Assembly (NCBI RefSeq): GCF_001047375.1
Contig: NZ_LFVU01000028.1
Location: 1-64,000, forward strand
Origin: Clostridium cylindrosporum DSM 605
Lineage (GTDB): Bacteria > Bacillota > Clostridia > Clostridiales > Caloramatoraceae
Reading direction: 5' to 3'
Length of the DNA stretch: 64,000 nucleotides
Position 1 is the first letter of the stretch. Each line of letters starts with the position of its first letter. A program made the translations under genes and the position numbers. This document shows positions 24,679 to 37,984 of the stretch, in pieces. The notes beneath the pieces were generated by a model. The model made no database searches and was not told the origin of the DNA. It worked only from the letters and a program-made list of their open reading frames with translations.

Positions 24679-24694
24679 ACATTAGTAAAAACCC
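24679..24694 (+). repeat. 16-nt direct repeat, left copy
   Basis: ACATTAGTAAAAACCC, identical to 29426-29441. The two copies bracket the Tet(M)-like/NYN gene with its IStron. Confidence 0.6.
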
Positions 24695-24716
24695 ACGATA
24701 TTTTTGCCGTGGGTTT
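24686..24716 (-). terminator. Terminator of the Tet(M)-like/NYN gene
   Basis: AAACCCACGG-loop-CGTGGGTTTTTAC hairpin with T5 on the minus strand, just after the stop at 24726. It resembles the hairpin at 33206-33237. Confidence 0.85.
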
Positions 24717-24725
24717 CAATTAGCC

Positions 24726-25029: not shown

Positions 25030-25164
25030 AATTCTGTTTAATTCCCTATTCAACCTACCCTATTTCAAATATCCGAAAATATTCTACTTTAGTTTGATGT
25101 AATAGTCCAAGGGCGTAAATTCCGATACAACGAATCGTACATATCAGTAATATCTTTTTTGTGA
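25030..25164 (-). ncRNA. IStron 3' end, putative omega-RNA scaffold
   Basis: Region from the tnpB stop to the right end, with a small hairpin CGAT-tcgttgt-ATCG and GC-richer segments unlike flanking DNA. In tnpB elements this segment is the guide RNA scaffold, with the guide taken from the flanking host sequence (here the 3' exon). Assigned by position, not by a recognised consensus. Confidence 0.45.
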
Positions 25165-26298
25165 TTAACTTACTAATTTATACTTAGATAGATTAATAGC
25201 AGCATTTAAGTCTCTGTCTATATTTAATCCGCAGTCTATGCAGCTATAAGTTCTGTCTGAAAGCTTTAAATCTTTTTTAGTGGCTCCACATGAACTACAT
25301 GTTTTAGATGATGCATACCATTTATCAGCTTGAATAAACTCTATACCGTTAAATTTACACTTATATTTCATTTGACGTATAAATTCATATAGGCATTGAT
25401 TTGCAATAGCTTTTGATAAATGTTTGTTTTTCATCATACCTTTAATATTTAAATCTTCCATAACAACCCTGTAAGGTTTTAACTTAACTATCTTATTCGT
25501 TGTTTGATGAATATGATTGTTTCTAATGTTTGTTAGCCTTCTATATATTAACTTTATTTCTTTTTCAAGTTTAATAATGTTATTAGTCTTAATAAAATTA
25601 GAACCGTTTTTATTCATTTCATACTTTCTCGAAACTTGTCTTTGTAATCTTTTAAGTCTTTTATTCAATCTTCTAACTTCATATGATTTATTAATGTTTT
25701 TAATTGGTTTATCTAAACAGCTAACGAAAGCTAAGTTTTTAATTCCTAAATCTATTCCTATTGATAAATCCTCATTTAACTCGATTTGGTTTTCACCTTG
25801 TTCAAAGCCTAATGTTAGGTACCAGTACTTACCATCAAAATGACACCTAGGGTTATTATATTTAGATAAACTAGGTATCTTATAATTAGTTTTATAATTT
25901 ACCTTACCTATTTTCTCTAAATTCACCTTATTATCTTCAAATTTAATAGCATCATATCTAACATAAAAGCTTTTTCTGGATTTTTTCTTAGATTTAAATT
26001 TAGGATAGTTAGATTCCTTTTTAAAGAATTTCTTAAAAGCATCATCTAAGTCACCAAATGCTTGTGCAGTAACCTGAGCGCTTACTTCATAAAGCCATTT
26101 ATATTCTGGTTGCTTTTTAACTGTATTATTAAATTCTTTCTTAATTGTAGACTTAGATGGTTTTGAACCTTGATTATATAATTCACTCCACTTGTTAAGT
26201 CCCCAGTTATATGCGAATCTAGCTATACCAACAGATTTAAACATTAATTCTTCTTGCTCTTTTGTTGGTAGTAATCTAATTTTTATGGCCTTTATCAT
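25165..26298 (-). CDS. tnpB: TnpB RNA-guided nuclease of the IStron
   Basis: 377 aa from the ATG at 26298, placed after AAGGAGGTGAGATA; an upstream in-frame start at 26316 overlaps the RBS. OrfB_IS605 fold: N-terminal IKIRLLPTKEQEELM, FAYNWGLNKW; RuvC-like catalytic residues all present, D183 (SIGIDLGIKNLAF), E281 (VVMEDLNIKGM), D362 (NIDRDLNAAINL); zinc finger C334-x2-C337...C353-x2-C356 (CSSCGATKKD...CIDCG). Nothing is truncated, so the nuclease should be active. TnpB cuts the donor site after excision and preserves the element. Confidence 0.93.
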   Translation of the reverse strand: MIKAIKIRLLPTKEQEELMFKSVGIARFAYNWGLNKWSELYNQGSKPSKSTIKKEFNNTVKKQPEYKWLYEVSAQVTAQAFGDLDDAFKKFFKKESNYPKFKSKKKSRKSFYVRYDAIKFEDNKVNLEKIGKVNYKTNYKIPSLSKYNNPRCHFDGKYWYLTLGFEQGENQIELNEDLSIGIDLGIKNLAFVSCLDKPIKNINKSYEVRRLNKRLKRLQRQVSRKYEMNKNGSNFIKTNNIIKLEKEIKLIYRRLTNIRNNHIHQTTNKIVKLKPYRVVMEDLNIKGMMKNKHLSKAIANQCLYEFIRQMKYKCKFNGIEFIQADKWYASSKTCSSCGATKKDLKLSDRTYSCIDCGLNIDRDLNAAINLSKYKLVS

Positions 26299-26469
26299 TA
26301 TCTCACCTCCTTGCATACTTATTGTACCAAATAGTTATCACATTATTGACAACCAATTTTTGTAATAAATACTTTGAGGTGATAAAATTATCTCTAATAT
26401 TAGATTACTTATAAAATACAAAGACATTTTTTAAACAAGTTATTTATATATATTTATAGATTTTTGACT

Positions 26470-26869
26470 TTATTCAATAGTATTCGTCATATACTACCAG
26501 TTCTCCTATGAACTTCTTATGCTTTCACATAAGCGTAGACTATATCATTACCTATTTCTAGGTATCCCCCACTTCCACTATCATTATTGACTTATAGTGT
26601 ACTTCCCTTCGGAATAGTCGTTGAAGTTTATTCATATCCATTGGACTTAGAATCTTACCTGCTGATTGCCTATTATTTAAAGCACTTAGGATTTAACCTT
26701 ATGCTATCTTAGTACTTTTTTCTGCTTTCGCAACATTCAAGCTTATCTTTTCAGATTACTTTGTAGTGTACTAAGCTTTAAGGGTTTCCAGCAATTCAAG
26801 GGATTTTGGATGGCCATTGCCACCACTCCATGCTCTTTATGAACATGGGAGGCTGTTGACAATTTTAAT
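26470..26869 (-). ncRNA. Group I intron ribozyme of the IStron
   Basis: Core elements in order on the minus strand: P (AATTGCTGGAAACCC, 26782-26796), Q (AATCAGCAGGTAAG, 26654-26667), R (TTCAACGACTATT, about 26613-26625) and S (AATGATATAGTCTACG, 26534-26549). R and S pair through GACTAT/ATAGTC as P7 does. A P2-type hairpin (CCTCCCATG...CATGGaGTGG) lies near the 5' end and a P9-like hairpin (GTAGTAT...ATACTAT) near the 3' end. Splicing anywhere equivalent to collapsing the 17-nt repeat restores the host reading frame. Confidence 0.88.
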
Positions 26870-29300
26870 ATCTATAAAAATCTATATGTTTTATTAGATT
26901 TTTATAGATATTTTGTAACTGTTCGGTTACCTCTTTAGTAAATACCATATGTATATTGTGATAGTCCACTATTTCCTCACGATGACCCTCAACACGGTAA
27001 GCATCAAAAACAACAACAATTTCTTTATTGTGAAAACCTTTATAATCACTTAGGATATCAAGTAATTTTATTCTGGCACCATCCATATTATCCTCTGCCA
27101 GTTCACTTAACTCTGGCCATGCAAAGATAATATTATAACCATCCACAAGAAGATATTCTTCTTTATTTGTATAATCTCTAGAAACAAAGTTTGATGTAAC
27201 AGGTTTGTAATAAGCTGCCCTAGCTGGCTTATAACTTTTCCATGCAGATTTCCTTCCCTGGTTGGCATAGTAGGTTTGATTGATTATCTTATCAATCTCA
27301 TCAGGGCTAATGAAACTCTCTTCTGTATATGCAGCTTGTTTTTGCATTCCTGAGCAGGATAACTCTTCTTTTTTATCAAAATAACTTTCTAAATGCATGT
27401 AATCCTTCACATTATTCCATTCAACAATAAAACCTGAACCTTGGGCACAGAATACAGAACTAGCCGTATTTCCAATGTCTCTTTCAGGATCATATGCTAT
27501 GCGCTCTATGACATCCTCAGAATTATGACAGGGCTCATATCCTTTTAAACTGCAAAAGAGCCTGCCAGTACCTTTGGTATAAGCAATCACTTCTTTTTGA
27601 TAATTTCTCATACCACTAACTGGGGCACTTCCAACTAAAACTGCGGTTTCACCGTCTGAATGAGCTATTTCGCAGGTACCATGAATTTTGTCAACATCAG
27701 TCATGGCTCTTCCTAACATTTTCTCAGGCAATTCAAGCTGAAAGGAGTAGTAAGGCTCCAACAAAACAGATTTAGCCTCCATTAAGCCCTGACGTACTGC
27801 ACGCCAGGTGGCCTCTCTAAAGTCACCGCCTTCAGTATGCTTATTGTGTGCTCTGCCAGAGACTAAAGTGATTTTCATATCAGTAATCTCCGAACCTGTT
27901 AAAACTCCTTTATGAACTTTTTCTTCAAGATGGTGTATAACTAAGTTCTGCCAACTCTTGCCTAGTATATCTTCACTGCATTTAGTTTCAAACACTAAAC
28001 CGCTTCCTATCTCGCCTGGCTCCAATAAAAGGTGAACCTCAGCATAATGCCTAAGGGGTTCAAAATGCCCTACTCCCTCAACTATATTTGCAATTGTTTC
28101 CTTATATACAATTCCTCCTGCATCAAAGGATACATCAACATCAAAACGGCTTTGTATCATGTTCTGAAGGATTTCGATCTGAACCTCACCCATAATACGA
28201 ACCTGAATCTCCTGCAACTGCTCATCCCACACAATATTAAGTTCTGGGTCCTCCTCTTCAATCTGACGTAGTTTAGGAATCATTGCTCTTGGGTCGCATC
28301 CCTCGGGCAGTATCATCTGATAGGACAATACAGGTTCAAGCACCGGAGCATTTGAAGCTTCCTCTACCCCTAGGCCTTCTCCTGGTCTGGCCTGACTTAG
28401 CCCTGTAACTGCACATATAGAGCCCGCTTCTATCTCACTTATTGCTTCAAATTTATTTCCAGAATATATGCGTATCTGATTTATTTTCTCTTCCCAGCCA
28501 TGATTGGATAGAACATCCTTTACCTTTAGCTTTCCACCGGTAACCTTCAAGTGAGTAAGGCGATTTCCCTGGTCATCCCTGGTTACTTTGAATATCTTAG
28601 CCCCAAATTCATCTGGATAAGAAGGTATTATAGTATAATCAACAATAACTTGTATCAATTGCTCAATGCCTTCCAATCTTAAAGCTGACCCGAAAATACA
28701 TGGAAATACCTTTCTACCCTTAATAGCTTCCCTAATCTGAACAGTTTCAATATGTTCTGTTTCCAGAAAGGTTTCCATCATGCTTTCATCACACATGGCC
28801 AGCTGATCGTAAAAGCCTTCTGTCTTTACCTGTTCAAATTCAACACATCCGTCATTTAGTTTCTTTTTCAATTCTTCTATTAACCTATCCTTATCCGTGC
28901 CACTTTGATCCATCTTGTTCACAAAAATAAAAGTAGGAATCTCATACAGTTCCAGAAGCCTCCAGAGAGTCCTTGTGTGTCCCTGAACACCATCTGCACC
29001 ATTTATAACTAGTATGGCATAATCTAATACCTGCAGTGTCCTCTCCATTTCAGCGGAAAAATCCACATGTCCTGGAGTATCCAGCAAGGTTATCTGATAC
29101 CCATTGGTTTCAAATATTGCCTGCTTGGAAAAAATAGTGATACCCCTTGCCCGCTCCAGCTCATAGGTATCCAAATATGCATCTTTATTATCTACTCTTC
29201 CTAATTTTCTAATCTTACCACTCATATAGAGCATACCCTCTGACAAGGTTGTCTTGCCCGAATCAACATGAGCTAATATTCCAATGACTATTTTTTTCAT
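26870..29300 (-). CDS. 5' exon of a Tet(M)-like ribosomal-protection GTPase fused to a NYN domain
   Basis: EF-G-like translational GTPase of the TetM/TetO family: AHVDSGKTT (G1, residues 10-18), RGITI (G2), DTPGHVDF (G3), NKMD (G4), followed by domains II-V. Compared with Tet(M) (~640 aa) it has a C-terminal extension of which VDGYNIIFAWPE and EIVVVFDAYRVEG are the start of a YacP-like NYN endonuclease domain. The rest of that domain is at 24726-25029. Without splicing the ORF reads through the palindromic element and stops inside the IStron at 26865, giving 811 aa. Such fusions are annotated in clostridia as tetracycline-resistance-like translation factors; whether it protects from tetracycline is not known. 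Confidence 0.85.
26895..26919 (-). repeat. Terminal inverted repeat of a short palindromic element, other arm
   Basis: Minus strand begins GTTACA and ends AAAAATCTA; partner of 25003-25027. Without the IStron the two arms make a palindrome of about 60 bp that is translated in frame inside the NYN domain. Confidence 0.6.
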
Positions 29301-29685: not shown

Positions 29686-32619
29686 CTAAGATTTATTTTT
29701 TCTAGCATCAATAATTAAAGTGTCTCCTATGTTGTAGGTTATCAAATTTATATCTTTCAAGACTTGACTCATTCGCTTTCTATCTAGCCTACTCACAACT
29801 TCACCAGTATAGTTACTATATTCCGTGGTAAAATTGTAATATTCATTTTCCACAAACATTTTCAACTCTATATGTTCATTATCTAATTCTAGACTTTCAT
29901 GGAATGCTTTACCTAAGTATTCCATTGCTTTAATAATATTACCGTTATCCCCCAATGTTTTGTAGATTAAAAACAAATTCTCAGTAATTATTGCATTATT
30001 CCTTCCTTTATTGCTCTTATTAATTGTATGAGCTTTGTTTAACTTATCAAGCGCCTTGTTATAATTAGAACTTTTATAATATATGTATCCCATTTTCATG
30101 TAGCACCATGATACCTCGATACTCTTTTCTCCAAAAGTACTTGAACTAGAAGACAATAGCTCCTTGCAAAAGTTAATAGCATCACTATATTCTTCAAGAT
30201 CAATTAGTGCGTCAATTACAATTCTAGTCTTTTCTATAGTAAGTTTAGAATTATTCCCATATATATCTTTATATTTCTTAATAGCTTCTTTATAATTCTG
30301 TATTGCATCACCTTTATTACCAACCTTTTCATGCGCAATTGCAAGATTGAACTCACTATCAATGATGATAGGATGCATTGGTTCATATAGCTTTTTTCTT
30401 AAATGATAGGCTTCGTTAATATTTATTATATACTTATCTTCTCTCTTTCTCTTAAGTGCAATATATGCTTTTAATTCTAATGTATCTGCATATAGCTTAT
30501 TTTCTGTCCCATAATGCTTAATTACTAAAGGTTCTATCTTATCTATCAAATTTTCCAGTTGATCTATCTCGTTAAGATTAAGTAGACATATCCCTAGATT
30601 AATCTTTTTTACTAGTAATTCTTTGTGTGATTTAGGATAAAATGATTCATCAATACTTATTGCTTCCATATATAAATTATATTCTTCATTATGTTCTCCC
30701 AATGAACTTAAAAGAACAGCCTTATTGTTTATAGCTTTTGAATAATGTAGACTTTTCTTAGTATAGATCTTTTCTGCTAAACTAATAGCCTCATCAATAT
30801 GAGATCGTGCTTCTTCATATTGCCCACTTTTAGTTTCTAAATCACAAATATTACATAAAATTGTTATTTTGGATTTTTCCATATCATCGAACTTTTCTAA
30901 TTCTTTAAGACTTTTCTTTAGATATATAATAGCCTGAAAGTAATCTCCTCTTTTTTTGAATAAGTTCGCAATATTATTTAATATTATAGAAACATTTCTT
31001 TCATCGTTATCCGCTCTTAATCTATCCAATGTTCCTAGATAAATATCTTGAGCCTTATCATCTTCTCCTAATTCTATCATAATACCTGCAAGAAGTACTG
31101 AAGCCATATTTAAATGATTATTTTCACTATCACCATAGTGATTAAATATGTCATATGCTTTTTGAGCATATGACATGGCTTTTTCTGTTTGCAAAAGTAA
31201 TTTAAAAGCAATTGCTCCTTTATATAAAAGCTCTGCAATAAGTCTTTTTTCTTGCAGGCAATCTCCATATATTGTTATATTATCCACTAAAGCTTCAAAA
31301 TGAGAAATTAGACTAAAACTATCTATAATTTTTACTTCATCTAAAAAATTATTTGGGAAGATGTTACAAAAAAGCTTTAAGGCTAGTAACATAGTCTCAT
31401 TATTTTCATTAGTATCTCTTAAAATAGCTTTTATTGATTCTATTATTAAACAATGTATAGATATATTGGACTTAGATAATTCTATTAATGAATACTTATT
31501 CAAGTTAGCAAGTGCATTATTTAAATTTAAAATATCTACATTTGTATCTAACACTTCTTCTAAGATAGTAATCTTGTTTTCAACGATTCTTCTTGGGAGA
31601 CTGTCTGGAGATAAAAAAGCAAATATATACATCAAATTCTTGCTAAGATTATTCTCTTTTGATATAGCATCTAGTCCAATTTGTCCTACAGATTTTATTG
31701 TATATTCATAATCTTTACTTGGTTCTCCACTTTCTAATACATCCATCTTATACTTATTATATAGTTCTACATAGTCCCTAAAGCCTATTTTGTTATATTC
31801 AATATATGATGCAGCTTGTACTAGTGCTATTGGCAAATTTCCTAGTAAATTCCCGACAATCTTAGCCCATTCTCTATCTTCTAATTGAGTTCTTTCTAAT
31901 AAAAAATCTATCGCTGTTTCTTCGTCAAACGGATTAATTTTCATAGGAGGTGTAAGTTCATTCCAATTAGAATTTTTTGATGTAATAATTATACTTAGCA
32001 TATTATCATACTCGATAGGCAAGTAATCATATATCATTTTATAATCAATTGCATCATCAAATATAAGCAATACTCGTTCTGTATCTAATACTTTGAAAAT
32101 AACCTCTTGTATAATAGTATCCACAGTTTTATTTTCATAGCCTAGCTTTAGATATTTAGCTAACTCCAAGAAGCTTTTAAGAATTTCCTCTTTTGAGCTA
32201 CACTTTATCCATGCAACTAACTTATAATGTTGCTTATTATCAATAGCATACTTTAATGCAAGTCTCGACTTTCCTACCCCGGGTAGTCCAGTTATTACTT
32301 GAATTTTATTCTTCAATAACCTATCTTTCAAGTCCCATAGTTCATTATCTCTTCCACAGCATTTCATATTTCTTATCTGCGGTACAAAAAAGATTTGTTC
32401 ATCATTTGAAGTATCTTGGTTGATAGAACTTCCATATATATATTTTTCTATATATATTCCATTGTTTATATTTATTTGCCTGTGATTTTCTTGTGTTCCA
32501 AAATTACAATTTTCAACAGTGTTAAAATTACTATCCTCAAAGTTTATAACTTTTTTATTATTAATTCTCCCAAATAAGTTTCCAATAATATGTCTAAATA
32601 AATATTTATTTTCTCTCAT
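29686..32619 (-). CDS. NB-ARC/TPR STAND ATPase (NLR-like), probable immune sensor
   Basis: 977 aa from the ATG at 32619 (the in-frame TTG at 32631 is an alternative). Residues 18-45: an Asn/Gln-rich motif, RINNKKVINFEDSNFNTVEN then NFGTQ. Residues ~88-400: NB-ARC with GLPGVGKS (Walker A, 111-118), VLLIFDDA (Walker B), IIITSKN and GNLPIALVQAA (GxP motif). Residues ~450-930: many TPR units (e.g. ALKLFCNIF, AQKAYDIFNHYGD, IYLKKSLKELEKFDD, ALDKLNKAHTIN). Bacterial NB-ARC-TPR proteins oligomerise on sensing phage and activate an effector. No enzymatic effector domain is fused; the small membrane protein encoded just upstream (14-nt overlap) shares the N-terminal motif and is the likely effector. 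Confidence 0.85.
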   Translation of the reverse strand: MRENKYLFRHIIGNLFGRINNKKVINFEDSNFNTVENCNFGTQENHRQININNGIYIEKYIYGSSINQDTSNDEQIFFVPQIRNMKCCGRDNELWDLKDRLLKNKIQVITGLPGVGKSRLALKYAIDNKQHYKLVAWIKCSSKEEILKSFLELAKYLKLGYENKTVDTIIQEVIFKVLDTERVLLIFDDAIDYKMIYDYLPIEYDNMLSIIITSKNSNWNELTPPMKINPFDEETAIDFLLERTQLEDREWAKIVGNLLGNLPIALVQAASYIEYNKIGFRDYVELYNKYKMDVLESGEPSKDYEYTIKSVGQIGLDAISKENNLSKNLMYIFAFLSPDSLPRRIVENKITILEEVLDTNVDILNLNNALANLNKYSLIELSKSNISIHCLIIESIKAILRDTNENNETMLLALKLFCNIFPNNFLDEVKIIDSFSLISHFEALVDNITIYGDCLQEKRLIAELLYKGAIAFKLLLQTEKAMSYAQKAYDIFNHYGDSENNHLNMASVLLAGIMIELGEDDKAQDIYLGTLDRLRADNDERNVSIILNNIANLFKKRGDYFQAIIYLKKSLKELEKFDDMEKSKITILCNICDLETKSGQYEEARSHIDEAISLAEKIYTKKSLHYSKAINNKAVLLSSLGEHNEEYNLYMEAISIDESFYPKSHKELLVKKINLGICLLNLNEIDQLENLIDKIEPLVIKHYGTENKLYADTLELKAYIALKRKREDKYIININEAYHLRKKLYEPMHPIIIDSEFNLAIAHEKVGNKGDAIQNYKEAIKKYKDIYGNNSKLTIEKTRIVIDALIDLEEYSDAINFCKELLSSSSSTFGEKSIEVSWCYMKMGYIYYKSSNYNKALDKLNKAHTINKSNKGRNNAIITENLFLIYKTLGDNGNIIKAMEYLGKAFHESLELDNEHIELKMFVENEYYNFTTEYSNYTGEVVSRLDRKRMSQVLKDINLITYNIGDTLIIDARKNKS

Positions 32620-32773
32620 TCTGATCACCAAAATTATTATCTTTGATAATATTAAAGTTACTCTTATTTAAATTAATTACTTTTTTATTATTAAATCGCT
32701 TTGCAGAATAAATAATAGTAATTAATATCCCAGCTACTCCTAGTATTACCCCTATTAACAAGCTTGTATCCAC
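32606..32773 (-). CDS. Small single-pass membrane protein paired with the NB-ARC gene
   Basis: 55 aa from the GTG at 32773, which is 7 nt after GGAGG; the ATG at 32779 is too close to the RBS. MDTSLLIGVILGVAGILITIIYS is almost all one membrane helix, followed by a basic boundary (AKR) and a tail FNNKKVINLNKSNFNIIKDN then NFGDQNERK. The tail aligns without gaps with residues 18-45 of the NB-ARC protein (16 of 28 identical: NNKKVIN, SNFN, NFG, Q). Stop TAA at 32606 lies inside the NB-ARC gene start, so translation is coupled. Proposed role: membrane-disrupting effector recruited through the shared motif. Unannotated size class; function is inference. Confidence 0.75.
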   Translation of the reverse strand: MDTSLLIGVILGVAGILITIIYSAKRFNNKKVINLNKSNFNIIKDNNFGDQNERK

Positions 32774-32779
32774 AGTCAT

Positions 32780-33205
32780 CCCTCCATTTGTTTTTGTTGC
32801 ATTTCAAATCTTTTTCTAAGCTATATATTACCATAACTTGTTTGGGCTTTAATACTACTTGATTTATATAGTCAGATAAGTATGTAATATCGTCCTTAGG
32901 TAAATTCAACATCGTGACAAGAGGACTAATCATGATATCTAACGTTTTCAAAACTAGCATTTTTGCAAATTAAATTATGTATATTGGTTTGATAATTATA
33001 TTTATCTTAAAATCCCTTATATTTCACTGGAGAAGCAGGCAAATTAAATCTTACTAACCTTTTTTAAATTTCTTCCATTCTCTTTATCTTTTGTTTCATT
33101 TTTCTTCTTTTTTACCTCTCCCCATATATGCCTTCAAAACAAAAATACACTATAACTCAATATGGTAATTATACCACATTTATACATAATATTATATTTT
33201 TCATA
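32780..33205. other. Upstream region of the NLR pair
   Basis: Contains a TATAAT at about 33165 on the minus strand that could serve as -10 for the pair. An open frame from 32960 lacks an RBS and overlaps the small membrane gene in another frame; its first ~55 codons could be a gene relic, but I do not recognise it. Confidence 0.3.
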
Positions 33206-33237
33206 TAAAAAACCCACGACATTTTTGTCGTGGGTTT
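33206..33237 (-). terminator. Terminator at the island's far end
   Basis: AACCCACGAC-aaaaat-GTCGTGGGTT with T6 on the minus strand. It sits directly after an ssrA-like 3' end, as the terminator at 37318-37355 does after ssrA itself, and is probably the displaced original ssrA terminator. Confidence 0.8.
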
Positions 33238-33252
33238 CAATGGTGGAGGCGA
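33232..33252 (+). repeat. Attachment-site copy (ssrA 3' end duplicate)
   Basis: GGGTTTCAATGGTGGAGGCGA: on the minus strand this ends in TCGCCTCCACCA, the 3' terminus of tmRNA, followed by the start of a terminator. It matches 37350-37369 with one extra A. Confidence 0.75.
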
Positions 33253-33322
33253 AGCGCGACCTTTAAAACCCACCAAAATTAAATTTATAGATAACTATAA
33301 ACAAAATTACATATATAAATTC

Positions 33323-33664
33323 CTACTTATAGCTTGAAGTTTCTATTTTAATAATTCGATTAAGTTTTTCATAAGTATCCATATGAATCCCCCAACTAGA
33401 TTTTTCATTAATTTGGTGTACCTTACAGCTATCAACAAAATCTCTAGTTAGCTGTACAAACAAATTGTATATTTCCTCTTCCTTTTTACAACTCTTTTTA
33501 CATGCAATATAAAACAACTCTTGGAAAAGATTCAAGCTTTCGTATCTTTTATATAAAGTAACCTTCTCCTCTATTCTTTTATAATCCATATTTAAAATTT
33601 TATCTATTATTTCTTTTTTACTCAGATTAATTTTTGTACTAACATTTTTCTTTATATCATCCAT
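33323..33664 (-). CDS. Hypothetical protein downstream of trlF-like gene
   Basis: 113 aa, strong RBS GGAGGATATTTTAT before ATG. Lysine-rich and helical, with a CKKSCKKEEE segment and no membrane helix. It starts 77 nt after the stop of the PHP-ATPase gene in the same direction and is probably co-transcribed. I do not recognise the family; by position it could be a partner or regulator of the ATPase. Confidence 0.65.
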   Translation of the reverse strand: MDDIKKNVSTKINLSKKEIIDKILNMDYKRIEEKVTLYKRYESLNLFQELFYIACKKSCKKEEEIYNLFVQLTRDFVDSCKVHQINEKSSWGIHMDTYEKLNRIIKIETSSYK

Positions 33665-33741
33665 ATAAAATATCCTCCAATTTTGTCTTTATATATTATA
33701 TGGATGATAAAATATATTTATTATTAAAGTTTTTCTCCTAC

Positions 33742-36522
33742 TTATTCCGTATACTTCTTACTCCTCTTTTCAAATGCAGGCATAGTACCCTCTAGAACGT
33801 CTACAATATACTTTCTCATTTCTGAAGCTTCCATACTATTATAAGTATATTTAAGATGTAATTCTTCTTTATTCATACTACTATAAATAATTTGTTCTGA
33901 ATCACATGCCACTGCTATATTAGGGTTATGGGTAACTATAATAATCTGCCTCTGAGCTTTTGCTCTAATTATATATTTCACTAATCTATCAAAAATAGAT
34001 TGGTTATCTAAATTATCTTCTGGCTGATCTATTATTAAAGGGCAATTTTCCTTATCCAATAATAAATAGAATATTAATAATAATAATCCTCTTTCACCTG
34101 GAGATAATTTACTTAATAATTTATCCCCTAATTTTAGTTGATAATTTGTTTTTATATAATCTAATCCATAAAGATTGTTAAAAAATTCTGCCTTATCTAA
34201 AAACACTTTATCGTAATCTGATGATGAATTTTTTAATTCATCTTCTATTTTTTTTAAAGAATCAAATACGCTATCAAATTCATCTATTTTTATTGTTTCT
34301 ACTAATAAAGATAAATTTTCCTTAGCCTGTTCTTTTCCTCTAAATATACTTTTTACATTTTGATTAATATGATTAAACAACTTTCTTTCCATATTATTAC
34401 TATCTAAATAAAAATTAATCTCTATTTTAGGCTTTTCTGATTCTTTTATATCAAGTTCACTTATTGCGCTATTTATATATGAATACTTTTGTGCATATTT
34501 TTCTACAATACTCTTTTTTAACAAATAAACTTCTTTGCATATCAACTTCCTTGATTCATATAGCTCATTTAGTTTTATAGGAATATCTTCTTCTAATACT
34601 CTAAGTTCTTCCCTTATTTTAGTAATATTCTCAGAGACTTTAGCAACTTTTTCTCTCCATTTTATTAAATCCTGTAAATAATTTTGATAATTCACCTCTG
34701 CTAATGATAATTTACTTGTTATTTGGGTAATTCTTTGCTGTGTCTCTTTTAACTTGAGCACTAATGTACCATCTTTCTTATCATTTTCAATAGTACTTAT
34801 TTCTAACTTTATACTATTTATCCCACTTTCAACTTGTTTCTTTAAAGATAGTAAATCTTCACAATTTACGTCTACCTTGCATGCAACTATTTCTTTTACT
34901 CCATTACTTAGCAAATTATTATTTAATTTATCGAACCATTCTTCTACACTATTCTTTGCTTTTTCAATTTGTTCTAAAGTACTTTCTATCAAATGTTGTT
35001 TTTTACTCAAATTGTCTAAATCTTGCTTTTTAATTTCAAATTGCTTTTTTAAATCCTCCATTTGAACATTAAGCATATTTAATGTTTCTTCTACTTGAGT
35101 GTCTATATTAGGCTTTACAACATCTATAGGTTTATTATTTGCTTCCTGTTCCAGTTGCTTTTGATAATCATTTAACTTTTCATTCAAAATTCGCTTTTCA
35201 CCAAGTGAACTCTTATTTTCCTTCTCTATAATTTGAGCATTTATTTCCTTTAACTTTACTTGCTTGGAATCAATATCTTTAACTACATTACTTGTTAAGT
35301 ATTCCATTAAGTGAAATAAAGAATCCATACCTAGTTTTTCCTCTTGTGGTAAATAGTCAAAAATAAGTCTTTCTATCTCATCATTAAAACCATCCTTTAA
35401 ATCATTACATACGTATTCAATATATTGTTGAGGTAAATATTTGACTTTCTCTACTAATAATGTATTATCAGTAGGAAATAATAACTTCTCCTCTTCAATT
35501 CCATTCTTCCATTTGAGTACTACACCATAATTTTTACCTAAATAATCTGGTTTTTGATTAAACTTTTCAGTACTTAAAAAAGAAAATTTATTATTATGAG
35601 TATTTCCTGCATGTCCAATTATATCTGCTAATGCACTTTTACCATTACCTTTGTTACCGATAATTGTAACTAAGTCATAATTTAGTGGTATTTCATCATC
35701 AAACCACTTATCTGAAGGTGTTATTCCTTTAATTTTAATGCTATCTATAAATTTATGACTATTATCATTAACAATTTTCTTCTTAGGAGGAATGTCTCCT
35801 ACAAAAAATCGTAACTCTGGTTCTTTAATTGCTTGCAGCAATCCCTCAAATGACGCATCTGCCTTTATCCATAAGTTCTCTTTCAATTGATAATTCCTAG
35901 GATCATGGTTATCGGAACAAATTATCATTGGCTTTCTTCTAACAGTTTTAAAAACGAATTTATTATAGTTATCTATATCATTTATCTTTCCCATTTCAAA
36001 AACATCTGCATATTCTGCAATTTCAGCTTTAATAGCCATATTAACTTCTAGAGAATTTGTTATACCATCATCAATTCCTTTATCTTTTTTACCAGCATGA
36101 ACACTAACAATGCCATTATTAGTCCTAGCAAATTCAACAATATCTTTGTAGTCCCAGTAAATGCTATCATGGTTATCCTTATTTCTTGCTTTATCATCTT
36201 TCATGATTACACTAAATCTGGTTGAAAGCTTATCCAAATCCTGATTAGAAAAAATTAAAATTACATGTAAATTTGAAGTTCCTTTATCACACCTTAGTTC
36301 TACTCCCGGTAAAATAGTAATTTCTGGTGCTAACAATTGTAGTTTTTTTATTCTTTCAGCATCAATTAAAAAATGATCTGTAATAGCAACAACCGCTAAT
36401 TCCTTTTCTCTCCAAGACTTTACTAATAATTCATCACAATCATCTGTTTTATATTTATAATCATATGATGATGCTGTATGAACATGCAAATCCCATTTTC
36501 TCCATTCTGACCCTCTACTCAT
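33742..36522 (-). CDS. TrlF-type PHP domain + SMC-like AAA ATPase, probable defence protein
   Basis: 926 aa. Residues 5-~235: PHP phosphoesterase domain with DLHVHT (11-16), ITDH (47-50), VHAG (141-144) and CSDNHD (202-207), the metal-binding His/Asp set. Residues ~275-926: an ABC/SMC-like ATPase with Walker A GNKGNGKS (289-296), a long coiled coil (~400-700), the signature LSPGERGLLLL and Walker B CPLIIDQPEDNLD, then IIVTHNPN. Matches the TrlF architecture. Related PHP or TOPRIM nuclease-SMC ATPase proteins (RloC, OLD, Lamassu) sense or cut nucleic acid during phage infection. Lies on a mobile island in ssrA, which supports a defence role; substrate is unknown. Confidence 0.85.
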   Translation of the reverse strand: MSRGSEWRKWDLHVHTASSYDYKYKTDDCDELLVKSWREKELAVVAITDHFLIDAERIKKLQLLAPEITILPGVELRCDKGTSNLHVILIFSNQDLDKLSTRFSVIMKDDKARNKDNHDSIYWDYKDIVEFARTNNGIVSVHAGKKDKGIDDGITNSLEVNMAIKAEIAEYADVFEMGKINDIDNYNKFVFKTVRRKPMIICSDNHDPRNYQLKENLWIKADASFEGLLQAIKEPELRFFVGDIPPKKKIVNDNSHKFIDSIKIKGITPSDKWFDDEIPLNYDLVTIIGNKGNGKSALADIIGHAGNTHNNKFSFLSTEKFNQKPDYLGKNYGVVLKWKNGIEEEKLLFPTDNTLLVEKVKYLPQQYIEYVCNDLKDGFNDEIERLIFDYLPQEEKLGMDSLFHLMEYLTSNVVKDIDSKQVKLKEINAQIIEKENKSSLGEKRILNEKLNDYQKQLEQEANNKPIDVVKPNIDTQVEETLNMLNVQMEDLKKQFEIKKQDLDNLSKKQHLIESTLEQIEKAKNSVEEWFDKLNNNLLSNGVKEIVACKVDVNCEDLLSLKKQVESGINSIKLEISTIENDKKDGTLVLKLKETQQRITQITSKLSLAEVNYQNYLQDLIKWREKVAKVSENITKIREELRVLEEDIPIKLNELYESRKLICKEVYLLKKSIVEKYAQKYSYINSAISELDIKESEKPKIEINFYLDSNNMERKLFNHINQNVKSIFRGKEQAKENLSLLVETIKIDEFDSVFDSLKKIEDELKNSSSDYDKVFLDKAEFFNNLYGLDYIKTNYQLKLGDKLLSKLSPGERGLLLLIFYLLLDKENCPLIIDQPEDNLDNQSIFDRLVKYIIRAKAQRQIIIVTHNPNIAVACDSEQIIYSSMNKEELHLKYTYNSMEASEMRKYIVDVLEGTMPAFEKRSKKYTE

Positions 36523-36744
36523 ATATGTATCACCTCATTATGTTAATCTGATAATATAATTATACATCAATCTCCTCCTTTTTTACATATTTAAACAAAA
36601 TATTGAATAATTTTATTGTATTGAAAATAAAATCCAAATAACCAATTTTAAACGACAGCAAAATAAAATATATTTTGTACATTAAAGACAACTTTAGCGT
36701 AGTTTACAATGCATTATTACTATAATTCTTAAATAAAGTATTCA

Positions 36745-37092
36745 TTAATAAACCTTAATATAGAAGCTATTACTATATCTTTCAAATAAACCATGCCTAT
36801 CAATTTTACTTAAAATCTCTACACCTTGACAATTTTTCAGCATATTAAAAGACACATTGAAGATTACTTCAATGTGTTCTTTATGCACTACTACTTCTTT
36901 TACGAAGTCCTGTATAAACTTTTTACATTCTAGTATGTTTCTACTTATTACATAACCCTTGAAGTTATTTAATAACATTCTTACATCTGCTCCGGTTACC
37001 ATTTGAGCTATATCATCTGATTTTAGTTTGGATTGCTTAAACTCTAACTCAGACTTTTGCATTTGTGCATATTTATCAAAAAATATTTATTT
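36745..37092 (-). pseudogene. C-terminal remnant of a large serine recombinase
   Basis: Open frame from about 37092 without a start; first ATG at 37062. FDKYAQMQKSELEFKQSKLK, then CKKFIQDFVKEVVVHKEHIEVIFNV is the end of a resolvase-type integrase (coiled coil plus final beta region). The catalytic N-terminal domain and zinc ribbon are missing. It lies about 300 nt from the ssrA 3' end and is the likely former integrase of the island. Confidence 0.75.
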
Positions 37093-37317
37093 TTGTATAT
37101 CTCATTATAATACTAAAATTCGCATAATGGAATCATTGAATGAACATCGAATAGTATTTTAAGTTTCATCGTCACTTAAGTTTATATATAAATGGATGTA
37201 GTTTTCCTAAAAAGTCAGTATACTCCAATTACTTTAATATACCAGCATACTCAAATAGTAAAAACCTCCGTTACTTTTGATACGGCTCACTCTGAATAAT
37301 TCTATAATTAAACATAG

Positions 37318-37355
37318 GGAAAAAACCCTCGATTAATCTAATTAGTCGAGGGTTT
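37318..37355 (-). terminator. Terminator directly after ssrA
   Basis: AAACCCTCGACTAATT / AATCGAGGGTTTTTT hairpin beginning 3 nt after the CCA end. Confidence 0.88.
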
Positions 37356-37369
37356 CATGGTGGAGGCGA
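37350..37369 (+). repeat. Attachment-site copy at the ssrA 3' end
   Basis: GGGTTTCATGGTGGAGGCGA, matching 33232-33252. Together they bound a 4.1-kb island. Confidence 0.75.
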
Positions 37370-37984
37370 GGGGACATGTTCTTCCACTATCTCTAATGGC
37401 ACTGACTATATCTTTAGCTCCAAAATATTTACTTGTAGCTACTTGGCGTATTATAGAAGTATAATATAGTTTTTACCTTCTATCCTAGTATCTCATATCA
37501 TAAGATTTAGAGACCTATAAGTCGATAAGGAGCTGTTAGGTTTCCCTACATACCCCTCGGTATTGCCGGTAGCATTACCTACTACGGTTTCACCGATAAA
37601 GCCAAGTTTTCACTTATGAATTACTTCATAAGGCGACTCTTTTCAAATCGAACCCCTGTCCGAAAGCATAAAAACTTAAGCATCTCCGAGTGCAGTTCTT
37701 GTTTTGAGATTCCCCCTATCTATCGCCCAAGAACAGGCTATAGATTTCGGTAGCTTCATAAATTCCGTTCCTATCTCAAAGCTTTGACAGGCGCGTTTCC
37801 CCACTTATTTGACACCCTGGTCCTAAGCTGTGGGAAGCCTAGGCAGGATGAGCTGCAACTAGGCAGCTAATGCGTAATTTTCGTTTTTTGCGTTTATATT
37901 TAAGTTCCCAGTTTTTAACGAGGTACAGGTCCTCGACTCGCTTCCTAAGCTCCTACTACCCCCGTCGAATGCCTTGACGCCCCC
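37358..37984 (-). ncRNA. ssrA: tmRNA gene, interrupted by an intron in the T-loop
   Basis: 5' GGGGGCG (37978-37984) pairs with 3' CGCCTCC before CCA (37358-37360). The tag reading frame GCAAAAAACGAAAATTACGC... encodes AKNENYALAA and then TAG, ending in the LAA degron expected for ClpXP. Pseudoknots surround it. The tRNA-like T-arm (AGGGG TTCGAT) is cut after TTCGAT at 37647 and resumes with TCCCCTCGCC at 37374. Without the 272-nt insert the mature RNA is about 355 nt, a normal tmRNA length. smpB is the next gene upstream, as usual. Confidence 0.95.
37375..37646 (-). ncRNA. Group I intron in the tmRNA T-loop
   Basis: The 272-nt insert begins after a U (exon 1 ends CGAU) and ends in G, as group I introns do. 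P1: exon CGAU pairs with internal GUCG (about 11 nt into the intron), with U-G at the splice site. P2: CTTATGAA-gtaa-TTCATAAG. A GTAGGGAAACCTAACAGC segment and an S element (AAAGATATAGTCAG, about 37414-37427) are present, with GACTTATA upstream able to pair with TATAGTC as P7. No ORF inside. Removal restores a perfect 5-bp T-stem with TTCGATT loop. Confidence 0.9.

What the first reader, a model, noticed from the sequence alone, without database searches (positions are those of the whole stretch)
33232..37374. 4.1-kb island integrated at the ssrA 3' end carries a TrlF-type defence ATPase
The last 12 nt of tmRNA plus the start of its terminator are duplicated at 33232-33252, and each copy is followed by its own terminator. 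Between them lie the PHP-SMC ATPase, a 113-aa partner and a serine recombinase relic. ssrA is a classic integration site. The intact defence genes with a dead integrase suggest a fixed defence island.
Basis: partly seen in the sequence, partly recalled or inferred. Interest (0 to 1): 0.7.

Follow-up and report, generated by a model that had tools for sequence, protein, structure and literature searches.

The report
Stranded defence island at tmRNA gene
A 4.1-kb piece of foreign DNA, carrying a probable anti-virus gene pair, was inserted at the end of the bacterium's tmRNA gene by a serine-type integrase that has since lost its working part; matching insertion scars in dozens of related bacteria show that this integrase family uses the tmRNA gene as a regular docking site.

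Summary
On the minus strand ssrA ends in TCGCCTCCACCAT (37357-37369). The only other exact copy in the 2.7-Mb genome is at 33240-33252, and each copy runs into its own terminator hairpin. Between them lie an intact TrlF-family PHP-SMC ATPase (926 aa, NF045780, 603 bits against a cutoff of 350), a 113-aa gene that follows a TrlF in one other genome, and the last 103 residues of a large serine recombinase (LSR). The far end is a true attR: its 32-bp arm-plus-core motif (TGGRTTT-N13-TCGCCTCCACCA) recurs 98 times in 53 of 218 genomes of the order, and the reversed control motif never. Intact LSRs 70-72% identical to the relic sit beside such sites. None of the 16 other genomes of the family has attR or TrlF. 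Beyond the window, related LSRs sit tail-to-tail with tmRNA or tRNA genes across Bacillota. A 2014 island database said serine integrases were not known to target such genes; the Dehalococcoides ssrA islands are an earlier exception. The phage-defence role is inferred, not shown.

The parts
37647..37984 (-). ssrA (tmRNA) exon 1
   Evidence: Rfam RF00023, 145.5 bits. Joined to exon 2, ARAGORN calls a 355-nt tmRNA with tag AKNENYALAA.
37375..37646 (-). group I intron, 272 nt, no ORF, in the tmRNA T-loop
   Evidence: Rfam RF00028, 41.4 bits, E 4.8e-9, below the gathering score of 50. Boundaries follow the U / omega-G rule. The same junction occurs in about 20 of 218 genomes of the order. Known site: T-loop position 7 (PMC11915505).
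37358..37374 (-). ssrA exon 2 (TCCCCTCGCCTCCACCA)
37357..37369 (-). attL core TCGCCTCCACCAT, at the intact ssrA
37322..37356 (-). ssrA terminator on the island side
   Evidence: hairpin -16.7 kcal/mol, z -5.6
36745..37062 (-). truncated large serine recombinase: C-terminal 103 residues only
   Evidence: 72% and 70% identical to residues 426-528 and 425-527 of intact LSRs in L076 and L075. The intact protein has Resolvase, Recombinase and Zn_ribbon_recom domains.
33742..36522 (-). TrlF-family PHP-SMC ATPase, 926 aa, intact
   Evidence: NF045780, 602.6 bits, cutoff 350, positions 1-943 of 944. 68% identical to a G168 protein over its full length. PHP and ABC/SMC motifs read from the sequence.
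33323..33664 (-). 113-aa partner gene
   Evidence: 46% identical homologue directly downstream of the TrlF gene in G168. No Pfam, PADLOC or NCBIfam match.
33241..33272 (-). attR: conserved arm TGGGTTTTAAAGGTCGCGCT plus core
   Evidence: motif TGGRTTT-N13-TCGCCTCCACCA: 98 hits in 53 of 218 genomes, 0 for the reversed control
33240..33252 (-). attR core TCGCCTCCACCAT (displaced tmRNA 3' fragment)
33209..33238 (-). displaced native ssrA terminator
   Evidence: hairpin in the -21.8 kcal/mol fold of 33190-33245, z -5.9

Best explanation
This is a small integrative island that entered the 3' end of ssrA through a large serine recombinase of a tmRNA-targeting family. The incoming attP carried a copy of the tmRNA 3' end (TCGCCTCCACCAT) and a terminator, so recombination rebuilt ssrA at one end (attL) and pushed the old 12-13-nt tail and terminator to the other end (attR). 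The order tmRNA, LSR, cargo, attR is the one seen in relatives. The LSR later lost everything but its C-terminal region, leaving the cargo stranded. The cargo, an intact PHP-SMC ATPase (TrlF family) with a small helical partner, most likely acts as an anti-phage nuclease module: the SMC-like part senses a phage-induced state of DNA or nucleotides and licenses the metal-dependent PHP domain to cut nucleic acid, as reported for Ppl. Shown here: the att sites, their conservation, the LSR relic and its intact relatives, and the TrlF family match. Inferred: the crossover point, the loss of mobility, the defence role and its mechanism, and the partner's role.
For: Only two exact copies of the 13-nt core in 2.7 Mb, both at the island ends. 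The 32-bp attR motif, with fixed 13-nt spacing, is found 98 times in 53 of 218 genomes and 0 times reversed. The nearest intact LSRs (70-72% to the relic) lie beside attR copies in L075 and L076. The order matches other loci and includes tandem arrays, with ten attR copies over 133 kb below ssrA in G076. None of the 16 other family genomes has attR or TrlF, while a genome of another family has the pair at 68% and 46% identity. The window attR is palindromic about the first shared dinucleotide TC (14 pairs, 0 of 2000 shuffles). TrlF scores 602.6 bits against a cutoff of 350, with a PADLOC Ppl match over its N-terminal 305 residues and a match to AriA of PARIS over the ATPase part. Compact ssrA islands elsewhere carry Septu, Lamassu, GmrSD-like and DpnII-type genes.
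Against: No genome of the same genus is held and synteny beyond attR is not conserved in the family, so the exact empty site was not seen. At family level the TC-centred symmetry is only the second best of the tested centres. The defence role is unproven; in Photorhabdus the TRL operon containing trlF limits growth at high temperature through TrlG, and no trlF mutation was found (PMC7554251). The cargo survey is small, and the control regions happened to include a CRISPR locus. A tyrosine integrase acting in trans was not excluded.
Confidence: 0.85

Rival explanations
1. The island was placed by a tyrosine integrase, now lost, as is usual for tmRNA genes; the serine recombinase relic is a passenger.
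For: Tyrosine integrases are the usual agents at tRNA/tmRNA genes (PMC4383910).
Against: The nearest intact LSRs sit between tmRNA or attL and the same attR motif in other genomes. Related LSRs end within about 20-110 nt of tmRNA 3' ends in about 20 of 80 loci. The cargo Pfam tally lists Resolvase/Recombinase, and no tyrosine integrase among the 25 families shown.
Confidence: 0.08
2. The repeat is a decayed second terminator region or a chance tmRNA-like fragment, and TrlF plus the 113-aa gene are ordinary resident genes.
For: The core is only 13 nt, and no same-genus empty site is available.
Against: Unique in the genome; the conserved attR arm is found in 53 genomes; TrlF is absent from the 16 other family genomes.
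Confidence: 0.02
3. The cargo is not anti-phage but a stress or temperature-response or plasmid-restriction module.
For: The TRL operon of Photorhabdus carries trlF and restricts growth at 36 C (PMC7554251); TrlF relatives are common on plasmids (855 records).
Against: In that study the phenotype mapped to trlG, not trlF. The resemblance to Ppl and AriA, and the mobile setting, favour defence or competition between mobile elements.
Confidence: 0.25
4. The group I intron in the T-loop came after the island and locks it in place by replacing the left half of the attachment site.
For: In the three intron-bearing genomes with a relic of this LSR near ssrA (G000, G025, G035) the LSR is broken. Beyond TCCCC, the left side of attL in the window is intron sequence.
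Against: attR occurs in 3 of 20 intron genomes and 44 of 132 plain ones, Fisher p 0.12. L116 has an intact LSR of another clade about 1 kb from an intron-bearing ssrA.
Confidence: 0.15

Closest known systems
Dehalococcoides ssrA genomic islands with integrase DsiB (PMC3146451)
   Same: Large serine recombinase (540 aa) next to ssrA, tandem islands, displaced ssrA 3' repeat, varied cargo including rdhA.
   Different: [quoted passage not shown] Here the shared block starts at the T-stem/acceptor junction, the motif differs, and no second recombinase was seen in the window island.
Tyrosine-integrase tDNA islands (Islander database, PMC4383910)
   Same: Gene restored at one end, 3' fragment at the other; the T-stem/acceptor junction is one of the known subsites.
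   Different: Serine, not tyrosine, recombinase. Islander 2014 states that serine-family integrases were not known to target tDNAs.
TrlF family AAA-like ATPase (NF045780; name as in the Photorhabdus TRL operon)
   Same: Full-length match above the curated cutoff.
   Different: No trlR- or trlG-like gene lies within the island; a 113-aa gene follows instead, seen in only one other genome.
Ppl anti-phage protein (NF042955, PADLOC Ppl)
   Same: N-terminal PHP domain followed by an NTPase.
   Different: Score 109.5 against a cutoff of 1000, so not a member; the resemblance is mainly in the N-terminal PHP half.
Group I intron of tmRNA T-loop position 7 (PMC11915505)
   Same: Same position, size class (272 nt; the mean given there is 293) and boundary rule.
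   Different: Nothing notable; a new example.

Membership tests
Site-specific genomic island in ssrA | gene regenerated at one end, 3' fragment at the other | tested here: met
Site-specific genomic island in ssrA | precise empty site in a close relative | tested here: inconclusive
   No same-genus genome is held; 16 other family genomes lack attR, but downstream synteny has diverged.
Site-specific genomic island in ssrA | integrase on board | tested here: inconclusive
   Only an LSR relic of 103 residues; intact relatives elsewhere.
Large serine recombinase | Resolvase, Recombinase and Zn-ribbon domains with catalytic Ser | tested here: not met
   The window copy lacks them. Its 72% relative in L076 has all three. 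The window piece is filed as a relic, not an LSR.
TrlF family (NF045780) | whole-protein score above the curated cutoff | tested here: met
   602.6 bits, cutoff 350
TrlF family (NF045780) | intact PHP metal-site and ABC/SMC motifs | tested here: met
   HVH 13-15, TDH 48-50, E75, H86, H142, SDNH 203-206; Walker A GNKGNGKS, signature LSPGE, Walker B LIIDQPED, VTH 863-865 (sequence); conserved in the 68% homologue.
TrlF family (NF045780) | anti-phage activity | not testable with these tools
   No phage challenge possible; no paper on TrlF defence found in the held library.
Ppl | score above NF042955 cutoff | tested here: not met
   109.5 bits, cutoff 1000
Group I intron (RF00028) | Rfam gathering score | tested here: not met
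   41.4 bits against 50, E 4.8e-9. Boundaries, T-loop position and restored tmRNA still support it.
DsiB-type Dehalococcoides ssrA islands | mid T-loop crossover and DsiA/DsiB module | tested here: not met
   Shared block starts after the T-stem; only one recombinase remnant.

The most novel reading that the evidence does not exclude
A widespread, unrecognised lineage of large serine recombinases in Bacillota uses tmRNA and tRNA 3' ends as docking sites, switches between them, and builds tandem arrays of cargo islands rich in defence genes at ssrA; the window holds one stranded member whose host also carries an intron splitting the same site.
Probability: 0.6. Interest if true: 0.65.

Novelty: new variant of a known kind. 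Interest (0 to 1): 0.5.

Why it matters
tRNA and tmRNA genes are regarded as the territory of tyrosine integrases. The attR motif here shows that serine integrases do the same over much of the order and, by their position, across Bacillota. That gives a defined set of integrases with a predictable single-copy target in a nearly universal gene, useful as tools and for finding islands, and an easy way to collect new defence genes: read what lies between ssrA and each attR motif. The TrlF pair adds a candidate two-gene form of a little-studied PHP-SMC family.

Tried and rejected
ARAGORN alone gave no tmRNA, explained by the intron. The relic had no significant Pfam or PDB match and no phage or plasmid match; whole-genome search identified it. 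Three weak 113-aa matches at 28-38% were chance: a helix-rich end of a large protein, a hydroxyethylthiazole-kinase-like ORF and an HD-type ORF (identities of these ORFs judged by eye). The 113-aa model (one of five models at pLDDT 79) had no significant PDB fold. The TrlF model was too poor to use (pLDDT 39). The first regular expression for cores was wrong and was corrected. Intron against attR was not significant (p 0.12). The LSR tree does not make the tmRNA-targeting LSRs one clade; tmRNA and tRNA targets are interleaved, and the careful search did not finish. Viral contigs held only distant TrlF relatives and none of the 113-aa gene.

Full report
Observation. On the minus strand the tmRNA gene runs from 37984 to 37358. 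ARAGORN does not find it, but Rfam does, and a permissive Rfam scan places a group I intron over 37383-37656 (41.4 bits, below the gathering score of 50, E 4.8e-9). Using the U / omega-G rule, exon 1 ends at 37647, the intron is 37375-37646 (272 nt) and exon 2 is 37374-37358. The joined product is a 355-nt tmRNA with tag AKNENYALAA that ARAGORN accepts. This is the known T-loop intron type (PMC11915505); about 20 of 218 genomes of the order show the same junction.

Boundaries. TCGCCTCCACCAT, the last 12 nt of tmRNA plus one base, occurs exactly twice in the 2.7-Mb genome: 37357-37369 and 33240-33252. The longer pattern with GAAACCC has no chance expectation in the window. Both copies lead into stable hairpins followed by U (z -5.6 and -5.9). 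The interval is about 4.1 kb.

The far copy is a real attR. Beside island LSR genes in other clostridia the same core is preceded by a conserved arm. The motif TGGRTTT-N13-TCGCCTCCACCA gave 98 hits in 53 of 218 genomes of the order; the reversed control gave none. The window copy is TGGGTTTTAAAGGTCGCGCTTCGCCTCCACCA. G076 has ten copies spread over 133 kb below its ssrA, so islands pile up in tandem. The window attR is palindromic about the dinucleotide TC at which identity with attL begins (14 pairs, none of 2000 shuffles as good). Over the 55 distinct sites collected this centre ranks second, so the exact crossover is an inference.

The recombinase. ORF 36745-37062 has no significant domain match by itself. 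It is 72% identical to residues 426-528 of a 529-aa protein of G093 and 70% to one of G069. The G093 protein has Resolvase, Recombinase and Zn_ribbon_recom domains. No other part of the protein was found in the island, so the catalytic serine domain is gone. Both intact relatives stand next to the attR motif, and the order tmRNA, LSR, cargo, attR is the same in the loci that include ssrA.

A wider family. A scan of 84,980 genomes for relatives of this LSR (80 best kept) showed many whose 3' end lies within about 20-110 nt of the 3' end of a tmRNA gene on the opposite strand. These include Paenibacillus, Clostridium, Ruminiclostridium, Desulforamulus and Alicyclobacillus. Eight others stand in the same way beside tRNA genes. 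The tree is a quick one, and in it tmRNA and tRNA targets are interleaved. The Islander paper of 2014 states that serine recombinases are not known to target tDNAs (PMC4383910). The Dehalococcoides ssrA islands with DsiB are an earlier exception with another crossover point (PMC3146451). The large LSR survey of 2022 scored target sites as protein-coding genes and its text does not mention tRNA or tmRNA (PMC10083194). No paper describing this clostridial family was found in the held library; that library lacks most subscription journals.

Foreign origin. None of the 16 other genomes of the family has the attR motif or a TrlF match. Twelve show one plain ssrA 3' end in the pattern search and one (G003) the intron form. 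G168, in another family, has TrlF at 68% over the full length with a 46% homologue of the 113-aa gene directly behind it, at a locus with no ssrA core within the 20 kb read. No same-genus genome is held, and gene order beyond ssrA is not shared in the family, so the strict empty-site test could not be done.

Cargo. The 926-aa protein meets the TrlF family cutoff (602.6 bits against 350). Its PHP metal-site residues and ABC/SMC motifs are complete (sequence). Its N-terminal 305 residues resemble Ppl, and its ATPase end resembles AriA of PARIS, the only solved relative by sequence. Ppl is reported as a PHP 3'-5' ssDNA exonuclease held in check by NTPs (PMC12904381). TrlF relatives are frequent on plasmids (855 records, 174 with at least 80% cover) and rare in phages. 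The 113-aa partner is predicted as a four-helix protein with no known fold match. It is rare: one other convincing genome among 225 of the order, none other among 291 of the class. The mechanism proposed, SMC-like sensing that licenses a PHP nuclease, is by analogy.

Cargo of sister islands. In 112 proteins of compact ssrA islands from five genomes, 114 PADLOC families matched at E 1e-10 or better, against 42 in 112 random-region proteins, which included a CRISPR locus. The island set includes Septu (PtuA, PtuB), Lamassu (LmuA, LmuB) and AriA-like genes beside transporters and metabolic genes. Single proteins include GmrSD-like, DpnII-like, RES-domain and a second PHP-SMC ATPase. This suggests enrichment but is not a formal test.

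Intron and islands. The intron replaces the left half of the attachment site beyond TCCCC. In the three intron genomes with a relic of this LSR near ssrA the gene is broken, but the counts (3 of 20 against 44 of 132, p 0.12) do not show that the intron blocks integration.

Verdict. Score 0.5: a new variant of a known kind, with a testable and possibly broad addition to tDNA integration biology.

Noticed in passing
window 37375-37646 (-): Group I intron, 272 nt without an ORF, in the tmRNA T-loop; the same site is interrupted in about 20 of 218 genomes of the order.
   Followed up: yes
window 29686-32631 (-): 981-aa STAND-like NB-ARC/TPR protein (FxSxx_TPR model 251 bits, below the cutoff of 300) just beyond attR, outside the island; possibly another defence or signalling gene.
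   Followed up: partly
window 25042-26316 (-): RAGATH-18 RNA (62.7 bits) 52 bp downstream of the end of a TnpB-like 383-aa ORF (ORF named by eye).
   Followed up: no
window 26865-29300 (-): EF-G-like protein close to tetracycline ribosomal protection proteins (NF012153, 435 bits, below the cutoff of 775) with a C-terminal extension.
   Followed up: no
window 24687-24720: 34-bp copy of the attR terminator hairpin (94% identity) without a tmRNA core beside it; probably only a similar terminator.
   Followed up: partly
G076 C1:5459507-5592664 (L233-L239): Array of ten attR motifs over 133 kb downstream of ssrA, carrying defence, transporter and metabolic genes.
   Followed up: partly
L106, L123, L125, L127, L144, L147, L155, L160: Large serine recombinases whose 3' end faces the 3' end of a tRNA gene (Ala, Gln, Arg, Pro, Leu, Pro, Ala, Arg) within about 100 nt.
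   Followed up: partly
L116 11492 and 12522: An intron-bearing ssrA end, then about 1 kb further a displaced tmRNA fragment with an intact LSR.
   Followed up: no
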